From assembly GCF_007991655.1 (NCBI RefSeq), contig NZ_BJYT01000036.1:1-35623 (forward strand): DNA of 35,623 nucleotides, in the 5' to 3' direction. Of this stretch, positions 19,959 through 35,623 are shown one piece after another. Under the pieces are notes generated by a model, which searched no databases, was not told the DNA's origin, and saw only the letters and a list, made by a program, of their open reading frames with translations. A program made the translations under genes and the position numbers. The first letter of the stretch is position 1. Each line of letters starts with the position of its first letter. The DNA is from Segetibacter aerophilus. Lineage in GTDB: Bacteria > Bacteroidota > Bacteroidia > Chitinophagales > Chitinophagaceae.

Positions 19959-20259
19959 AAGGAAATGGAAAAACCTGCAAGGAAATCTAAAAACCCTTAA
20001 GGATATCAGAAAAACCTGCAAGGAAATCAGAGAAACCTTCAGGGAAAACGGAAAAACCCTCAACGAAATCGGAAAAACCTTCAATTAAATCGGAAAAACC
20101 CTCAATGAAATCGAAAAAAGCTTCAATGAAATCAGAAAAACCTTGAATGAAATCGGAAAAAGCTTCAAGTAAATCAGAAAAACGTTCAAGGAAATTGGAA
20201 AAACCTTCAATCAAATCGGAAAAAGCTTCAGGGAAATCAGAAATACTTTTAAGGATTTG
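19959..20259. repeat. 21-bp tandem repeat array (heptad-length)
   Basis: About 14 degenerate copies of a unit close to GAAATCGGAAAAACCTTCAA plus one base. The first two steps are 20 bp; all later ones checked are 21 bp. Because the period equals seven codons, any frame without stops encodes a heptad-like repeat: plus strand K-T-F-N-E-I-G, minus strand F-S-D-F-I-E-G. The plus frame is broken by TAA in two units; one minus frame stays open through the whole array. It lies in the 643-bp gap between the tricorn gene and hsdR; the remaining gap holds no gene. Confidence 0.85.
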
Positions 20260-20513: not shown

Positions 20514-20906
20514 TTGTCAACAACAACTGTAAATAAAAAATCACTTTCAGAAAGAGACGTCTGTTCGAAATACATAACGCCTGCTATTGTTAAAGCTGGT
20601 TGGGATATAGACACGCAGGTATTGGAAGAAAAATCTTTTACAGACGGTAAGATTTTCGTGCGAGGAAAACTTACTGCACGCGGTAAAGTAAAGAGGGCCG
20701 ACTATATTCTTTACTACAAACCTAATATTCCCATAGCTATTATTGAGGCAAAAGACAATAATCATACAGTTGGTGCAGGATTACAACAGGCATTGGAGTA
20801 TGCCCGTATTCTTGATATCCCTTGTGTTTTTAGTAGTAATGGTGACGGCTTTGTATTTCATAATAGTACCGCTAAAGGAACTAATATTGAAACAAATTGG
20901 CTTTAG
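20514..20906 (+). pseudogene. hsdR: Type I restriction enzyme R subunit, N-terminal fragment
   Basis: The first 130 residues of HsdR, containing the PD-(D/E)xK nuclease core: D near ADYILYYK and the IEAKD element, followed by QALEYARIL. The frame starts with TTG immediately after an in-frame TAA, and its N-terminus (LSERDVCSKYITPAIVKAGWD) matches the family. It stops prematurely at 20904 (TAG). The next frame begins [13 protein letters not shown], exactly where HsdR should continue. Adding one T in AAATTGG near 20897 restores N-L-A-L-D-E-F. The nuclease is therefore separated from the translocase in this sequence, and restriction is probably lost unless the shift is a sequencing error. Confidence 0.85.
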
Positions 20907-22921
20907 ATGAATTTCCGTCTCCTGATGTATTGTGGAGGATATACCAACACTACAAAGGCATAACAAAACCGGAGGAAGAAAGAGTCATCTCCCAGGATTA
21001 TTTCTCCGATGCTTCTGGAAGGTTGCCAAGGTACTACCAACAAGTTGCCATTAATAAAACGATTGAGGCCGTTGCCAAAAACCAAAACAGAATCCTATTG
21101 GTAATGGCTACCGGCACTGGAAAAACTTATACCGCCTTCCAAATTATCTATCGGCTTTGGAAAGCAGGAGTGAAGAAGCGAATACTGTTTTTAGCAGATC
21201 GAAATGCTTTAATCGATCAAACAAAGCGTGGAGACTTCAGGCATTTCAAAGATAAAATGACGGTTGTTAAGAACCGAATTGTTGACAAAAGCTACGAAGT
21301 TTATTTAGCCTTATACCAGGGTTTATCCGGAACTGATGAAGCCGCCAATGCTTACAAGCAATTCAGCCCTGACTTCTTTGACCTTATTATCATTGATGAG
21401 TGTCATCGTGGAAGTGCATCTGAAGACAGTGCATGGAGAGAAATATTAAAGCATTTCAACAAAGCAACACACGTTGGCTTAACTGCAACTCCTAAAGAGA
21501 CAGAAACCATATCCAACAGTGAATATTTTGGCGATCCTATCTATACTTATTCGTTAAGGCAAGGAATTGACGATGGTTTTCTTGCACCATATAGAGTCGT
21601 ACGTGTTGGTCTAAATGTAGACCATGAAGGTTGGCGACCCGACAAAGACAAAACAGATAAAGACGGAAATATCATAGAAGATAGAATCTATAATCGTAAA
21701 GATTATGACCGCACTTTAGTGATTGATGAGCGTACAGATATGGTTGCTAAAAAGGTAACGGAATTTCTAAAAGGTACGGACCGGTTTTCAAAAACAATCA
21801 TTTTTTGTGTTGATATAGATCATGCAGAACGAATGCGCAGTGCTATTGCAAAGCAGAACAGTGATTTAGTAAGAGAGAATTACAAATATGTAATGCAGAT
21901 AACCGGTGATAATGATGAAGGCAAAAGAGAGTTGGACAACTTTATTAATCCTGAAGAACGATACCCAGTTATAGCTACCACCAGTAAGTTAATGACAACC
22001 GGAGTGGATGCGCAAACATGCAAAGTCATTGTACTCGACAGTAATATCCAGAGCATGACCGAGTTTAAGCAAATCATTGGTAGAGGTACCCGTATTAACG
22101 AAGAGTTTGGGAAATTATATTTTACCATACTAGATTTCAGAAACGTAACAGATCTCTTTGCGGATCGTGCTTTTGACGGCGACCCTGTTCGTATTAAAAC
22201 GGCTACAGAAGATGAAGACCTGGGAGATGTCAAAGAAGAGGAGGAGGCAATAGTTGACGTTGAACCAATAGACAATGAAGGCCTTGAATGGCAGGAACCA
22301 GAAACACCGTACGGAGAAGATGGAACAGGTGAATTTATAGATCGAGATTATGTAAAACGTGAAAAGGTTTATGTAAATGGAGTTGATGTATCGGTATTAA
22401 TAAGTCGTGAAATGTATTTTGACAATAATGGTAAACCAATAACAGTTTCACTAAAAGATCATACAAAAGAGATCATCAAAAATCAGTTTGCAACACTAAA
22501 TGATTTTTTAGGCAAATGGAACGATGCAGACCGAAAAGCTGCAATTATTAAAGAGTTGGAAGAACAAGGTGTTTTAGTATCCGCTTTGCAGGATGCAGTT
22601 AATAAAGAAGTTGACTTATTTGATTTAATATGCCATGTTGCATATGACCAACCTCCTCTGACCAGGAAGGAAAGAGCTAATAACGTTACCAAACGCAACT
22701 ACTTTACAAAATATGGTGAAGAAGCCCGGCAGGTATTAAGTGCTTTATTAGATAAATATGCTGATGAAGGAATAACAACCATCGAAAGCACAGAAGTACT
22801 TTCTTTACACCCTTTTGATGATTATGGTTCACCTGTTGAAATAATCAGAATGTTTGGAACAAAGGATAAGTATTTCGAAGCAATTAAGGAATTGGAAAAT
22901 CAATTATACCAAAGTGCCTAG
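20897..22921 (+). CDS. hsdR: Type I restriction enzyme R subunit, helicase/translocase part (frameshifted)
   Basis: The remainder of HsdR (674 residues if started at the TTG). It has a superfamily 2 translocase core: Walker A ATGTGKT (71-77), DEAD-box variant DECH ([13 protein letters not shown]), motif [11 protein letters not shown], and motif VI IGRGTRI. An EcoEI-type C-terminal region ends in [12 protein letters not shown]. It translocates DNA in a type I restriction complex with HsdM and HsdS. The nuclease domain is in the preceding fragment, one nucleotide out of frame, so this is probably the 3' part of a broken gene rather than an independent start. Its C-terminus is intact and the next gene begins 3 nt after its stop. 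Confidence 0.9.
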
Positions 22922-22924
22922 TAA

Positions 22925-23383
22925 GTGAGCAGTACATTTTCTCAAATATATATTCAAACCGTTTTTGCCGTAAAAGGTCGACAAAGCTTGATCTCGGAAG
23001 TTTGGGAAGATGAACTGTACAAATACATAACAGGTATTGTAAGAAATAAGGAACAAAAGATGCTGGCAATTAATGGTATGCCTGACCATATCCATTTTTT
23101 GATTGGTATGCGTCCGTCTTGTTGCTTATCAGACTTAATAAGAGAAATAAAGAAATCGTCAAACAAGTATGTGAACGATAATTTTATGAAATCTAATTTT
23201 CAGTGGCAAGATGGATATGGTGCCTTCTCGTATAGTCACTCAGCATTAGATAATGTGGTTGGTTATATTATGAACCAGAAGGAACATCACAAACGGCAAA
23301 CATTTAAAGAAGAGTATGTAGAGTTTTTACGCAAGTTCCAAATTGATTATAAAGATGAATATTTGTTTGAATGGATAGAATAA
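22925..23383 (+). CDS. RAYT-like single-domain Y1 (HUH) transposase
   Basis: A 152-residue Y1 transposase-family (IS200/IS605 TnpA-like) endonuclease. The HUH motif is H55-I-H57 (PDHIHFLIG). The presumed nucleophile is Y114, followed four residues later by Q118 (YIMNQKEHH), the same Tyr-x3-Gln spacing as in IS608 TnpA. It starts with GTG 3 nt after the hsdR stop, leaving no room for a left transposon end. No TnpB is present. Its downstream neighbour is an array of short hairpins. This fits a REP-associated tyrosine transposase (RAYT) living with its cognate repeats, translated with hsdR, more than a mobile IS. Activity cannot be judged from sequence. Confidence 0.88.
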   Translation: MSSTFSQIYIQTVFAVKGRQSLISEVWEDELYKYITGIVRNKEQKMLAINGMPDHIHFLIGMRPSCCLSDLIREIKKSSNKYVNDNFMKSNFQWQDGYGAFSYSHSALDNVVGYIMNQKEHHKRQTFKEEYVEFLRKFQIDYKDEYLFEWIE

Positions 23384-23395
23384 AGACCGTAGTGC

Positions 23396-23921
23396 GATGG
23401 CGAAGCCATCCAATATTTATAGAAACCAAGCGCAACAGAATAATACGACCCCTTCGGGGTCGAACAAGCAACAAAACATCAATTGCTATAAACATTCAAT
23501 CCCTTCAGGATTAAAAACATGAGACAAACAAAGATGGCGAAGCCATCCAATATTTATAGAAACGGCGCAAAACAAAATAATACGACCCCTTCGGGGTCGA
23601 ACAACAACAAAAAATCATTGCTATAAACATTCAATCCCTTCGGGATTAGAAACATAAGACAAACAAAGATGGCGAAGCCATCAAATATTTATAGAAACGA
23701 CGCGAAACAAAATAATACGACCCCTTCGGGGTCGAACAACAACAAAAGGTCGTTCCTATAAACATGTAATCCCTTGGGGATTAAAAACATAAGACGAACA
23801 AAGATGGCGAAGCCATCAAATATTTATAGAAACCATGCGCAACAAAATAATACGACGCCTTCGGGGTCGAACAACCAACAAAACATCATTTACTATAAAC
23901 ATTCAATCCCTTTGGGATTAA
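23396..23921. repeat. REP-like array: four ~136-bp units, three hairpins each
   Basis: Four tandem units of 135-137 bp, each with three short hairpins in fixed order. A is GATGGC-GAA-GCCATC (starts 23396, 23533, 23668, 23803). B is CGACCCC-TTC-GGGGTCG (starts ~23446, 23583, 23718, 23853). C is AATCCC-TTC-GGGATT (starts ~23498, 23633, 23768, 23906). Linkers are also conserved, e.g. AATATTTATAGAAAC and CTATAAACATTCAAT. C loops vary (TTC, TTC, TTG, TTT) while most stems hold; C1 and B4 carry one mismatch each. The array fills the gap between the RAYT-like gene and hsdM, ending ~15 nt before the hsdM start. No gene lies within. Confidence 0.93.
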
Positions 23922-23935
23922 AATCATAAATAACA

Positions 23936-25369
23936 ATGTCTAACCTCACCTCCACCATAAAATCCATCCAGGACATCATGCGCAAAGATGCCGGTGTTGA
24001 TGGCGATGCTCAACGTATCTCACAACTCGGCTGGATGCTGTTTCTGAAAATATTTGATACAAAAGAAGAAGATTGGGAAATCACCAACGACAACTATAAA
24101 TCACCCATACCTAAAGACCTTCGTTGGCGTGAATGGGCTGCTGATGAAGAAGGCATGACCGGAGACGAATTACTTGGCTTCGTCAACAACTCACTATTTC
24201 CACGACTCAAAGACCTGAAGCTGAAAGGCAACAAAGACGCTGGTCTCATGGTCAAGCAGGTGTTCGAAGACAGTTACAACTACATGAAGAGTGGTACTCT
24301 GCTTCGACAGGTCATCAACAAGATTAACAGCGATATTCAGCTAACCTCAAAATCTGACCGGCACCAGTTCAACGATATTTACGAACAAATACTCCGCGAC
24401 CTGCAAAGTGCCGGTAATGCCGGTGAGTTTTACACACCCCGTGCCGTTACTCAGTTTATTGTTGAAATGATTGCGCCTAAGCTGGGCGAAGTAGTGCTTG
24501 ACCCTGCATGCGGAACCGCCGGTTTCCTTACCAACGTAATTGACTATATCGAAACCCACCAGAAGGTAAAAACACTCGAGCAGCGCCAGCAATTGCAAAA
24601 CTGCATAACAGGTGTCGAAAAGAAACCGTTGCCCCACATGCTTGCCACTACAAATCTTATTTTGCATGGCATAGAGGTACCCGTTATACAACACGACAAC
24701 CTGCTCAACCGTAGCTGGACCGAATGGAGCAACAAACACAGGGTAGATGTCATTGTTACCAATCCCCCTTTTGGCGGTATGGAAGAAGACGGAGTAGAGA
24801 ATAATTTTCCTGCACAATACCGTACCCGCGAAACAGCCAACCTGTTCATGTCGCTGGTCATTCACCTGCTAAAAGATGGCGGACGCTGCGGACTGGTATT
24901 GCCCGATGGCTTTTTGTTTGGCGAAGGCGTAGCCACCCGTATAAAAGAAAGCCTGCTGGAAAAGTGCAACCTGCATTCAATAGTGCGATTGCCCAATGGC
25001 GTGTTTGCCCCTTATACAGGCATCAAAACAAACCTGCTGTTTTTTACAAAAGGCGGCCCCACCAAAGACGTTTGGTATTTCGAACATCCTTACCCACATG
25101 GCGTAAAGAACTACAATAAAACCAAACCCATCAATATAAAAGAGTTCGACCTCGAAAAAGCCTGGTGGAATAACCGCCAAGAGAATGCCTATGCATGGAA
25201 GGTAAGCGCCGAAGAACTAAAAAAGCGCAATTACAATTTCGATATCAAGAACCCAAACAGCACCGAAGCACAACACCAATACACCAGCAATGAATTAATT
25301 GATTTGCTCGGACAATCATTTGTCCAAAGCAACCAGTTACTAAAACAATTAAAAGAAGAATTAGTATGA
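23936..25369 (+). CDS. hsdM: Type I restriction-modification system M subunit (N6-adenine methyltransferase)
   Basis: The methylating subunit of the type I complex; with HsdS it methylates adenines in a bipartite DNA target. Its N-terminal helical domain (about 1-130) is followed by the methyltransferase core with SAM-binding motif I DPACGTAGFL (from D189) and catalytic motif IV NPPFGG (from N276). The 477-residue length is normal and no damage is seen. It begins right after the hairpin array and ends ~80 bp before the hsdS start, a gap that carries a piece of the dispersed repeat. Of the three type I subunits here, only this one looks intact. Confidence 0.96.
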   Translation: MSNLTSTIKSIQDIMRKDAGVDGDAQRISQLGWMLFLKIFDTKEEDWEITNDNYKSPIPKDLRWREWAADEEGMTGDELLGFVNNSLFPRLKDLKLKGNKDAGLMVKQVFEDSYNYMKSGTLLRQVINKINSDIQLTSKSDRHQFNDIYEQILRDLQSAGNAGEFYTPRAVTQFIVEMIAPKLGEVVLDPACGTAGFLTNVIDYIETHQKVKTLEQRQQLQNCITGVEKKPLPHMLATTNLILHGIEVPVIQHDNLLNRSWTEWSNKHRVDVIVTNPPFGGMEEDGVENNFPAQYRTRETANLFMSLVIHLLKDGGRCGLVLPDGFLFGEGVATRIKESLLEKCNLHSIVRLPNGVFAPYTGIKTNLLFFTKGGPTKDVWYFEHPYPHGVKNYNKTKPINIKEFDLEKAWWNNRQENAYAWKVSAEELKKRNYNFDIKNPNSTEAQHQYTSNELIDLLGQSFVQSNQLLKQLKEELV

Positions 25370-25440
25370 TACAAGGTGCAGTAACTCCGGTTAAGCATCG
25401 TTGCGTCGCATTTCGTTCATCAGTTGTGCTGCTATTAAAC
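25366..25440 (-). repeat. Inverted copy of the dispersed repeat between hsdM and hsdS
   Basis: Read on the minus strand this gap carries GAACGAAATGCGACGCAACG, followed by CGGAGTTACT and CTTGTA. These match, in order and spacing, the repeat starting near 27766. The repeat was therefore probably inserted between hsdM and hsdS, very close to the hsdM stop. Confidence 0.75.
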
Positions 25441-25448
25441 AAGTAAGA

Positions 25449-26795
25449 ATGAGTTGGAAGACTGTAAAGATTGGAAGTTTTTTAAAAGAAAGAACTGGTA
25501 GGTATAAACCAACGCAAGCAAATGCAATGGGGCTGAAGCGTGTAGAAAAAATCGATTTTTCCGGAACATATCATTTAGTGGATAAGCCTACTAATACTGA
25601 TATGATACTAGTAAGGAAAGGCGACCTGCTTATTTCTGGAATTAATGCTGAAAAAGGTGCGGTAACAATTTACCGCGATGAAGAGGATGCGCTAGCAACA
25701 ATTCACTACTCCTCATATGAGTTCGATGAAACCAAAATTTATATTGATTACTTCAAATGGTTTCTGATTAGTAATGCATTTAAAAATCTTCTACGTGCAA
25801 GCTCCGGAAATGGAATAAAAACTGAATTGAAAGCAAAGCATTTGTTGCCTTTAGAAGTTAACTTGCCACCATTGGTTGAGCAAATGGAAATTGTTGAGAG
25901 TATTAATTCAAGACAAGTAAAACTAAAAACTATTGGCACAGAAGTCAACCAACAACAAATCTATCTCCAACTTCTCCGCCAAACCATATTGCACAAAGCC
26001 GTACAGGGGAAATTAACTAAACAAAACCTAACAGACGAACCAGCAACCGAACTACTAAAACACTTAAAAGCCGAAAAAGAAAAACTAATAAAAGCAGGCA
26101 AGCTTAATAAGGAAAAAGAACTACGACCAATATTAGAAGATGAAATTCCTTTTGTATTACCAGAAGGTTATTCTGACGACATTGTAATAGTTTGCTCTAC
26201 TGATCAGGCTAAAGAGATTGAGTCTTTTATAACTATCACTTTAGAAGAAAGCAAAGTTCAAATAAGCACTAATAAAACAGAAACCTTTGTATTTAAGAAA
26301 TTAGCTTTTGGAAAGCAAGAACCTCGGCTCACTTCTGTAAAGATTACAACTGATGGGGAAAAGGTTGCCGCGCCTTTTAATTACTTAGGTTTTGAGTTTA
26401 ATGGACAAAAAGCATTAATAAAATCAGCAAATCTTGCAAAGTTTTACCGACGCATGATATCGTCTGTAAAAAGAAAAGCCAAGAGAGCTAAGAAACTTGC
26501 AGAAAGAACTCCGGGAGAAAAACCTCGTATTTATAGAAGACAACTTTATAAGCTATATACCAGTCGTCCCCTTCACAATGTCAAAGTACGAAAACGTTGG
26601 AAAAAAATCGTAAAAATAGAGACAGGAGAATTTCGACTTGTGACAGGAGTTAAAGAAAAAGATTTTCGAAGCAACTATCTTTCTTATGTTAGACGTGCAA
26701 GTGAAATAATGAATGAACCAGCAATAGAAAATCAGATAAGGAAGCATAAGACTATTTTTAATCAAGCCATTTTTAGGCATTTAAAAAAAGATTGA
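25449..26795 (+). CDS. hsdS: HsdS-reverse transcriptase chimera
   Basis: A 448-residue in-frame chimera. Residues 1-240 are the first half of a type I specificity subunit: TRD1 (1-~155), then the central conserved helices (LPPLVEQMEIVESI; LLRQTILHKAVQGKLT) and the linker PFVLPEG that normally leads into TRD2 with a Trp. Instead, residue 241 begins YSDDIVIVC, the YxDD palm motif of a reverse transcriptase, followed by LEESKVQISTNKTE and LGFEFNGQ. A long basic C-terminus runs to ..IRKHKTIFN. RT motifs upstream of YxDD, including the first catalytic Asp, are missing, so polymerase activity is not expected. The RT half resembles C-termini of non-intron, defence-type RTs. The ATG at 25449 is preferred over an upstream TTG. 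TRD2 is lost. Confidence 0.85.
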   Translation: MSWKTVKIGSFLKERTGRYKPTQANAMGLKRVEKIDFSGTYHLVDKPTNTDMILVRKGDLLISGINAEKGAVTIYRDEEDALATIHYSSYEFDETKIYIDYFKWFLISNAFKNLLRASSGNGIKTELKAKHLLPLEVNLPPLVEQMEIVESINSRQVKLKTIGTEVNQQQIYLQLLRQTILHKAVQGKLTKQNLTDEPATELLKHLKAEKEKLIKAGKLNKEKELRPILEDEIPFVLPEGYSDDIVIVCSTDQAKEIESFITITLEESKVQISTNKTETFVFKKLAFGKQEPRLTSVKITTDGEKVAAPFNYLGFEFNGQKALIKSANLAKFYRRMISSVKRKAKRAKKLAERTPGEKPRIYRRQLYKLYTSRPLHNVKVRKRWKKIVKIETGEFRLVTGVKEKDFRSNYLSYVRRASEIMNEPAIENQIRKHKTIFNQAIFRHLKKD

Positions 26796-27699: not shown

Positions 27700-27765
27700 C
27701 TACAAAAATGACAGTTCGGACAAATGGCAAATGGTAAGCAAGGCGGGATAAAAGATGTACCGCCG

Positions 27766-27985
27766 AACGAAATGCGACGCAACGATAATCAAACGGAGTT
27801 ACTTACGCTTGTACCAAAAAAACAATCATTTCCTCAACTGAAGCTTTCGACTTTATTTATGCCCTTTTCCCATTCCGGTTAAAATTGATACAAAGTCTAA
27901 GCTTTCGCCTTTGCAGGTGTTCTTCACCTGCAAACATAGATGAACAAGGTGCTGTTGGTGAAGAACGCACAACAGCGGCAGAACG
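27766..27985. repeat. Dispersed modular repeat, copy 1 (modules a-b-c)
   Basis: Most complete copy. Module a contains GAACGAAATGCGACGCAACG. Module b starts at GTTACTTACGCTTGTACC near 27798 and runs to CAAAGTCTAAGCTTTC. Module c contains a hairpin with arms TTTGCAGGTG and CACCTGCAAA around TTCTT (27910-27934) and a second, partly degraded hairpin with GCTGTTG and CAACAGC arms (27951-27976). It fills most of the gap between phhB and the alginate-lyase-like gene. Confidence 0.85.
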
Positions 27986-34922: not shown

Positions 34923-34954
34923 CAAATTTTACTGTTCGTTGTTTTCCCGTACAA
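34923..34954 (-). promoter_or_regulatory. Candidate promoter of dcp
   Basis: On the minus strand TTG is followed after about 21 nt by AAAATTTG, a one-mismatch form of TAnnTTTG, 43 nt before the dcp start. It sits just before the repeat array. Motif matching only. Confidence 0.25.
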
Positions 34955-34968
34955 TGACGTTGCTTTTT

Positions 34969-35623
34969 GTTGTCACCCTGAGCTTGTCGAAGGGTGGGTG
35001 AACATTCAGTACTTAGCTGAGCAAGGCTTCGACAAGCTCAGCCTGACATACTATTGTTCGTTATTGCGAGGAACGGAGCAATCTGCTGTTTGAGTATAAG
35101 AGTATTTATAATTCATAGACCTCTTGGTTAAAAATCAGATTGCTTCGTCGTTCCTCCTCGCAATGACGTTTGTTTTTTGTTGTCACCCTGAGCTTGTCGA
35201 AGGGTTGATGAATATTTAGTACTTAGCTAAGCAAGGCTTCGACAAGCTCAACCTGACATACTATTGTTCGTCATTGCGAGGAACGAAGCAATCTGCTGTT
35301 TGAGCACAAGTGTATTCGTAATTCATGGACTCTTGGTTAAAGATCAGATTGCTTCGTCGTTCCTCCTCGCAATGACGGTTGCCTCTTATTGTCACCCTGA
35401 GCTTGTCGAAGGGCTGATGAAAATTTAGTACTTAGCTGAGCAAGGCTTCGACAAGCTCAGCCTGACATACTGTGTTCGTCATTGCGAGGAACGAAGCAAT
35501 CTGCTGTTTGAGTATAAGGGTATTTATAATTCATAGACCTCTTGGTTAAAGATCAGATTGCTTCGTCGTTCCTCCTCGCAATGACGTTGCTTTTTGTTGT
35601 CACCCTGAGCTTGTCGAAGGGTT
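34969..35623. repeat. ~209-bp tandem array of nested inverted repeats (runs off the window)
   Basis: Units start near 34972, 35182, 35391 and 35599 (steps 210, 209, 208); the last is cut by the window end. Each unit contains two inverted-repeat pairs: CCCTGAGCTTGTCGAAGG against CTTCGACAAGCTCAGCC, and CATTGCGAGGAACGAAGCA against TGCTTCGTCGTTCCTCCTCG. The spacers (e.g. the TTTATAATTCATAGACCTC type) are also conserved. Both arms are well-known types of dispersed intergenic repeats; here they are tandemly amplified upstream of dcp. No gene is seen. Confidence 0.9.

What the first reader, a model, noticed from the sequence alone, without database searches (positions are those of the whole stretch)
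25449..26795. In-frame chimera of a half HsdS and the back half of a reverse transcriptase
Seen: one uninterrupted frame in which the HsdS linker PFVLPEG (normally followed by Trp and TRD2) runs straight into YSDDIVIVC, the YxDD core of a reverse transcriptase palm, then LGFEFNG and a basic tail. The join is at residue 240/241 (near base 26168). Known: type I S subunits need two TRDs or a dimer of half-S; RT motifs before YxDD supply an essential catalytic Asp. Inference: a deletion between hsdS and a neighbouring defence-type RT gene (DRT/abortive-infection class) made the fusion. The product may be a half-specificity subunit with a new RNA/DNA-binding tail, or just debris. Either way two defence systems are joined in one polypeptide.
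Basis: partly seen in the sequence, partly recalled or inferred. Interest (0 to 1): 0.85.

Follow-up and report, generated by a model that had tools for sequence, protein, structure and literature searches.

The report
Half HsdS fused to DRT2 remnant
In this bacterium a stretch of DNA appears to have been lost between two anti-phage genes, leaving one gene that reads from half of a DNA-recognition protein straight into the back half of a reverse transcriptase; it is probably a leftover, at most a half-sized methylation guide.

Summary
ORF 25449-26795 is uninterrupted: residues 1-240 are an HsdS first half (TRD1, central helix, linker); 241-448 are the C-terminal part of a DRT2 reverse transcriptase, from YxDD to the natural end. 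DNA similarity to hsdS of relatives stops at 26167-26169, where RT similarity starts. The DRT2 front half was not found elsewhere in the genome, nor a TRD2, though TRD2s vary so much that one could be missed. In 2 of 26 DRT2 neighbourhoods hsdS lies upstream on the same strand, the layout a deletion needs. No listed match in five overlapping Bacteroidota samples spans both halves outside this genome.

The RT part lacks fingers, motif A and an upstream ncRNA, so it should not work as DRT2. Best reading: a deletion-born chimera in a decaying type I locus. HsdM is intact and half-S homodimers are known, so an orphan methyltransferase stays possible. The RT tail shows no decay (19 of 19 conserved positions): recent, tolerated or used.

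The parts
20514..20906 (+). hsdR front fragment (N-terminal region), cut off by a frameshift
   Evidence: alignment with G004 and G014; the gene is one frame of 802 aa in G004, 803 aa in G599 and 808 aa in G014
20897..22921 (+). hsdR remainder: helicase motor and C-terminal domain (ResIII, EcoEI_R_C)
   Evidence: Pfam; frame relation to the front fragment
22925..23383 (+). IS200-like Y1 transposase gene (RAYT-like, the latter name recalled) between hsdR and hsdM
   Evidence: Pfam Y1_Tnp E 6.6e-26; G004 has a different 271-aa frame here
23396..23929 (.). tandem array, 135-bp unit, 3.9 copies, just before hsdM
23936..25369 (+). hsdM, intact (477 aa)
   Evidence: Pfam N6_Mtase and HsdM_N; 96.9% aa identity to G004, dN 0.018, dS 0.34
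25449..26168 (+). hsdS first half: TRD1, central conserved helix and linker up to PEG
   Evidence: Pfam Methylase_S, PADLOC Specificity_I, EcoKI S subunit in the PDB; up to 55% aa identity to first halves of longer HsdS frames
26167..26169 (+). junction, ambiguous by at most about 3 bases
   Evidence: end of hsdS DNA alignments; RT contexts
26169..26795 (+). DRT2 reverse transcriptase C-terminal part: YSDD motif C, rest of palm, thumb, natural C-terminus
   Evidence: NCBIfam and PADLOC Drt2; 58% aa identity to the G248 DRT2; 19 of 19 conserved positions kept; domain names by analogy with PMC12039810

Best explanation
The ancestor carried hsdR-hsdM-hsdS with a DRT2 gene downstream on the same strand (inferred). 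An illegitimate deletion removed TRD2 and the end of hsdS, whatever lay between with the DRT2 promoter and ncRNA, and the front half of the RT (fingers and motif A palm), joining the HsdS linker in frame to the RT YxDD motif (inferred). The product is translated from the hsdS start (inferred). Its RT half has no motif A and no ncRNA in front, so DRT2 defence is lost (the missing parts are shown, the loss of function is inferred). hsdR is frameshifted (shown), so restriction by this locus is probably lost too (inferred). What can remain is HsdM plus a half-S: either inert debris or an orphan adenine methyltransferase using a half-S homodimer with the RT remnant as a passive tail.
For: Domain assignment of both halves. 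hsdS DNA similarity ends where RT similarity starts. The DRT2 front half was not found elsewhere in the 79-contig genome, nor a TRD2 (see caveat). hsdS lies upstream of DRT2 on the same strand with two frames of 200 aa or more between them in L077 and L081. hsdR is frameshifted against uninterrupted frames in G004, G599 and G014. No other listed match spans both halves, and seven HsdS matches that ran past residue 241 hold no RT relative. A second DRT2 remnant without a front half, in G732, shows that such losses happen. From papers: the DRT2 RT needs its active site and a ~280-nt upstream ncRNA that contacts fingers insertion and thumb (PMC12039810, passages); half-S homodimers derived from EcoR124I and EcoDXXI recognise palindromes (PMC3874165, passages).
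Against: No strain with the pre-deletion arrangement of this very locus was found. The TRD2 search used the HsdS of G004, and TRDs of other specificity can be too different to detect, so a displaced TRD2 is not excluded. The RT tail shows no decay (19 of 19 conserved positions, no stop in 208 codons) and the frame was kept across the join, though by chance that happens one time in three. Raw reads were not available.
Confidence: 0.78

Rival explanations
1. The fusion is an active half-specificity subunit: two copies pair through the central helix, bind two HsdM and methylate an interrupted palindrome set by TRD1; the RT tail is a tolerated or useful C-terminal extension, and loss of HsdR made the change of specificity safe. 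(This can be true together with the deletion origin.)
For: HsdM is intact and strongly constrained against G004 (dN 0.018, dS 0.34). TRD1 and the central helix are present. EcoR124I delta-50 and EcoDXXI delta-C are direct precedents (PMC3874165, passages). The tail is not decayed.
Against: The HsdM constraint is measured over the whole time since the two lineages split, not since the fusion. In the linker the window has 10 private amino-acid changes against 3 in G004 (chi2 P 0.052), but private synonymous changes are 6 against 2 (Fisher P 1.0), so this is not informative. 208 added residues may hinder dimerisation.
Confidence: 0.3
2. The junction is an assembly error.
For: The genome is a 79-contig draft and no raw reads were held.
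Against: The 200 bases round the junction have no good second match in the genome (next best E 0.08 over 29 bases), so there is no evident repeat to mis-join at. The piece such an error should leave over, the DRT2 front half, was not found; the TRD2 search was negative but weak. The assembly is rated 100% complete and 0.03% contaminated.
Confidence: 0.06
3. A selected new protein: the DRT2 thumb and C-terminus give the half-S an RNA-binding or self-assembly function.
For: In frame, with the region of the thumb and the natural C-terminus whole; 19 of 19 conserved positions kept. The 3' part of the ncRNA binds the thumb in DRT2 (PMC12039810, passages).
Against: No second occurrence among the listed matches of the sampled genomes; no other DRT2 in the genome and no Rfam match in the window; the operon has other lesions.
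Confidence: 0.06

Closest known systems
EcoDXXI delta-C and EcoR124I delta-50 half-S subunits (HsdS truncated so that only the first TRD and its helix remain; PMC3874165, passages)
   Same: TRD1 plus central conserved helix kept, TRD2 lost, hsdM present
   Different: Here the truncation is in a natural genome, ends in 208 residues of DRT2 RT, and hsdR is frameshifted; methylation untested
DRT2 defence reverse transcriptase (NCBIfam NF041746; PDB 9c0i and others; the group name UG2 is recalled)
   Same: YxDD motif C, LGFEFNG, thumb region and C-terminus, 19 of 19 conserved positions
   Different: All residues before YxDD are missing; no upstream ncRNA; fused behind HsdS
Type I hsdRMS of G004 (same genus, L030)
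   Same: HsdM 96.9% identical; hsdS linker about 89-91% DNA identity; same start codon context
   Different: G004 has hsdR in one frame, a full two-TRD hsdS, and a different gene between hsdR and hsdM

Membership tests
Type I HsdS | TRD1 followed by central conserved helix | tested here: met
   Pfam and PADLOC matches, EcoKI S alignment
Type I HsdS | second TRD and second helix in the protein | tested here: not met
   residues 241-448 match Drt2, not Methylase_S
Type I HsdS | operon with hsdM and hsdR | tested here: met
   hsdM intact, hsdR present but frameshifted
Half-S methyltransferase (Type I 1/2 kind) | homodimer of half-S with two M, methylates a palindrome | not testable with these tools
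   needs methylome or purified protein
DRT2 defence system | complete RT with motif A Asp and fingers | tested here: not met
   profile match starts at position 260 of 416; no front half found in the genome
DRT2 defence system | YxDD, thumb-region and C-terminal conserved residues | tested here: met
   19 of 19 positions conserved among 25 DRT2-like proteins with uninterrupted frames
DRT2 defence system | ncRNA of about 280 nt upstream of the RT | tested here: not met
   the bases directly upstream of the RT part are hsdS coding sequence; Rfam gave no match at its thresholds in the window, but I did not check that Rfam holds this RNA

The most novel reading that the evidence does not exclude
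A natural half-specificity subunit that uses a captured DRT2 thumb region as a nucleic-acid-binding or assembly tail, giving an HsdM methyltransferase with new specificity after restriction was lost.
Probability: 0.06. Interest if true: 0.65.

Novelty: new variant of a known kind. Interest (0 to 1): 0.3.

Why it matters
It catches two defence systems collapsed into one reading frame while the methyltransferase gene stays intact. If the half-S works, it would be a counterpart in a natural genome of half-S mutants known from the laboratory; if not, it is a documented step in the decay of a defence locus. In the related loci, type I restriction-like genes lie within about 10 kb of DRT2 in 6 of 26 neighbourhoods, so such fusions may arise now and then.

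Tried and rejected
Other RT groups: group II intron, Drt3a, UG17, UG36 and CRISPR-associated RT models all score far below Drt2. Structure prediction of the whole chimera from a single sequence gave mean pLDDT 33.6 and was not used; two viral-contig scans found no relatives for an alignment. Phage records held no relative of the RT tail; plasmid records held 10 distant ones, at most 32.1% identity, 4 of them annotated drt2. The genome-contig scan gave one distant relative of the RT part and no name for the source genome. An empty-site comparison failed: the right-flank gene matched in 0 of 9 other genomes of the genus (E 1e-30 or better) and the left-flank gene in 1 of 9, at 39% identity (E 1e-100 or better). 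Tests for relaxed constraint in the HsdS linker were not informative; the rows were the matches covering nearly the whole linker, in loci under 5 kb. A first dN/dS run for the linker and TRD1 used wrong frames and is replaced. Rfam and tRNA scans found nothing in the window. Paper searches with HsdS-RT terms listed 10 of 69 and 10 of 134 papers, and no listed title or abstract start mentions an HsdS-RT fusion; only passages of PMC12039810, PMC3874165 and PMC11100668 were seen, so this does not prove absence from print.

Full report
What is there. The frame 25449-26795 is open for 448 codons. The start at 25449 agrees with hsdS in genome G004 of the same genus, whose protein also begins MSWK. 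Residues 1-240 are the first half of a type I specificity subunit: Pfam Methylase_S at residues 3-151, many PADLOC Specificity_I models including matches to the linker at 175-242, and the EcoKI S subunit in the PDB. Residues 241-448 are the C-terminal part of a DRT2 reverse transcriptase: NCBIfam Drt2 at E 9.1e-32 over profile positions 260-416 of 416, PADLOC Drt2 at E 5e-40, and solved DRT2 chains at E 1e-6 to 8e-6. Group II intron, Drt3a, UG17 and UG36 models are much weaker.

The join. DNA similarity to hsdS of relatives (89% over 228 bases to L003, 84% over 220 bases to L041) stops at 26167 and 26169. In the HsdS of relatives the linker runs on into Trp and TRD2; in the DRT2 contexts of relatives, YSDD is preceded by Arg (whose search pattern required that Arg; one search shows the same with Arg or Lys allowed). 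At most about three bases could belong to either side, so this looks like an illegitimate join, not recombination in a long repeat (inference). The 200 bases round the junction have no good second match in the genome.

Is it an assembly error? Reads are not available. The genome is a draft of 79 contigs rated 100% complete with 0.03% contamination. A full DRT2 query found only the tail at this locus. The full HsdS of G004 found only this half, a fragment on contig C2 covering its residues 7-171, and a chance-level hit at E 0.4. TRDs vary so much that a TRD2 of another specificity could escape this search. With no repeat at the join and no left-over RT front half, an error is unlikely.

The surroundings. 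hsdM is intact and 96.9% identical to G004 HsdM, dN 0.018 against dS 0.34. hsdR is broken: the frames 20514-20906 and 20897-22921 correspond to one frame of 802 aa in G004, 803 aa in G599 and 808 aa in G014; the shift lies near 20.9 kb. The second piece holds the helicase motor; that the front piece holds the nuclease is recalled knowledge. Between hsdR and hsdM lie an IS200-like Y1 transposase gene and a 135-bp tandem array, where G004 has a 271-aa frame. The locus thus shows several signs of disruption, of which the fusion is one.

Is the inferred ancestor plausible? I fetched 26 of the 27 genomes' DRT2-part matches seen, with up to about 10 kb on each side. The 27th, in G321, is a 42-residue match at a contig end and was left out of the count. 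An HsdM-like match at E 1e-4 or better lies near DRT2 in 6 of 26 (L077, L081, L089, L113, L114, L116). Pfam finds two Methylase_S stretches in an HsdS frame in five of these and one stretch in L113. In L077 the order on one strand is hsdR, one frame, hsdM, hsdS, two frames of 204 and 366 aa, DRT2, with HsdR 74% identical to the window's motor part. In L081 an hsdS also lies upstream of DRT2 on the same strand, with frames of 650 and 328 aa between; its HsdM-like gene lies beyond DRT2. So the layout needed for the deletion occurs in 2 of 26. These neighbourhoods were drawn by similarity to the chimera and are not a census.

Is the fusion seen elsewhere? The whole chimera was searched in samples of 59 relatives, 394 genomes of the family, 395 of the class, 396 of the order and 395 of the phylum. 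The samples overlap, and in the last four at most four candidates per genome were scored. Only the window's genome has a listed match spanning both halves. Some HsdS matches run past residue 241, at most to 284; seven of them (G186, G190, G294, G553, G1232, G1305, G1184) were tested against the RT tail and a full DRT2, and none holds an RT relative (one chance match at E 0.18).

A second remnant. In G732 (L093) the DRT2 similarity starts a few residues before YxDD, about 250 bases downstream of a tRNA-Lys gene on the same strand, and is split by a 2.8-kb stretch holding two opposite frames that look like IS21 istA and istB (the name is recalled, not tested); four full DRT2 queries found no front half in the 20 kb. 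It is not fused to HsdS. It shows that DRT2 genes lose their front half elsewhere too; two cases are too few to speak of a preferred breakpoint.

Does the tail decay? In an alignment with 25 DRT2-like C-termini from uninterrupted frames, 19 columns are conserved at 85% or more among the others, and the window keeps 19 of 19. Left-out DRT2 proteins keep between 14 of 21 and 19 of 19. So there is no sign of decay, which means a recent event, or tolerance, or use. For the HsdS linker the window keeps 27 of 30 conserved positions, within the range of 20 other HsdS copies (22 of 29 to 29 of 29). A relative-rate test gave 10 private amino-acid changes against 3 in G004 (P 0.052), but private synonymous changes are 6 against 2, so it is not informative.

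How it most likely works. DRT2 defence needs the RT active site and an ncRNA of about 280 nt upstream of the RT, which contacts both the fingers insertion and the thumb (PMC12039810, passages seen). The fusion keeps YxDD and the thumb side but has neither fingers, nor motif A, nor an ncRNA in front, so it should not act as a DRT2 enzyme (inference from missing parts). For the HsdS side, truncated S subunits of EcoR124I and EcoDXXI form homodimers that recognise palindromes (PMC3874165, passages seen). The fusion keeps the corresponding parts, so an orphan methyltransferase is possible. With hsdR frameshifted, restriction by this locus is unlikely, though a second type I-like locus with an uninterrupted 816-aa HsdR-like frame sits on contig C2 (judged from its place and first residues, not by profile).

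Verdict. Functionally it is most likely debris or a half-S methyltransferase guide with a passive tail. Interest is modest.

Noticed in passing
window 20514-22921: hsdR is split by a frameshift near 20.9 kb compared with uninterrupted frames in G004, G599 and G014.
   Followed up: yes
window 22925-23929: A Y1 (IS200-like) transposase gene followed by a 135-bp tandem array of 3.9 copies sits inside the hsd operon.
   Followed up: partly
window 25370-25448 and 27765-27803: A short dispersed repeat lies between hsdM and hsdS and again at 27.8 kb; a search of the own genome with 25370-25448 gave 40 matches, itself included, at E 0.01 or better, 40 of 163 candidates being scored. It may be a REP element moved by the Y1 transposase.
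   Followed up: partly
L034 7443-9605 (G000 contig C2): A 721-aa frame in the same genome looks like HsdM at its start and holds an HsdS-like half (53% identity to residues 7-171 of G004 HsdS), next to an 816-aa HsdR-like frame: apparently a natural M-half-S fusion.
   Followed up: partly
L093 6463-9861 (G732): A second DRT2 remnant without a front half: similarity starts just before YxDD, near a tRNA-Lys gene, and is split by an IS21-like insertion of about 2.8 kb.
   Followed up: partly
window 19959-20255 and 34952-35623: Two further tandem arrays: a 21-bp unit (14.2 copies) upstream of hsdR and a 209-bp unit (3.2 copies) running to the end of the contig.
   Followed up: no
L077, L081, L089, L113, L114, L116: DRT2 genes lie within about 10 kb of type I restriction-like genes in 6 of 26 neighbourhoods.
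   Followed up: partly
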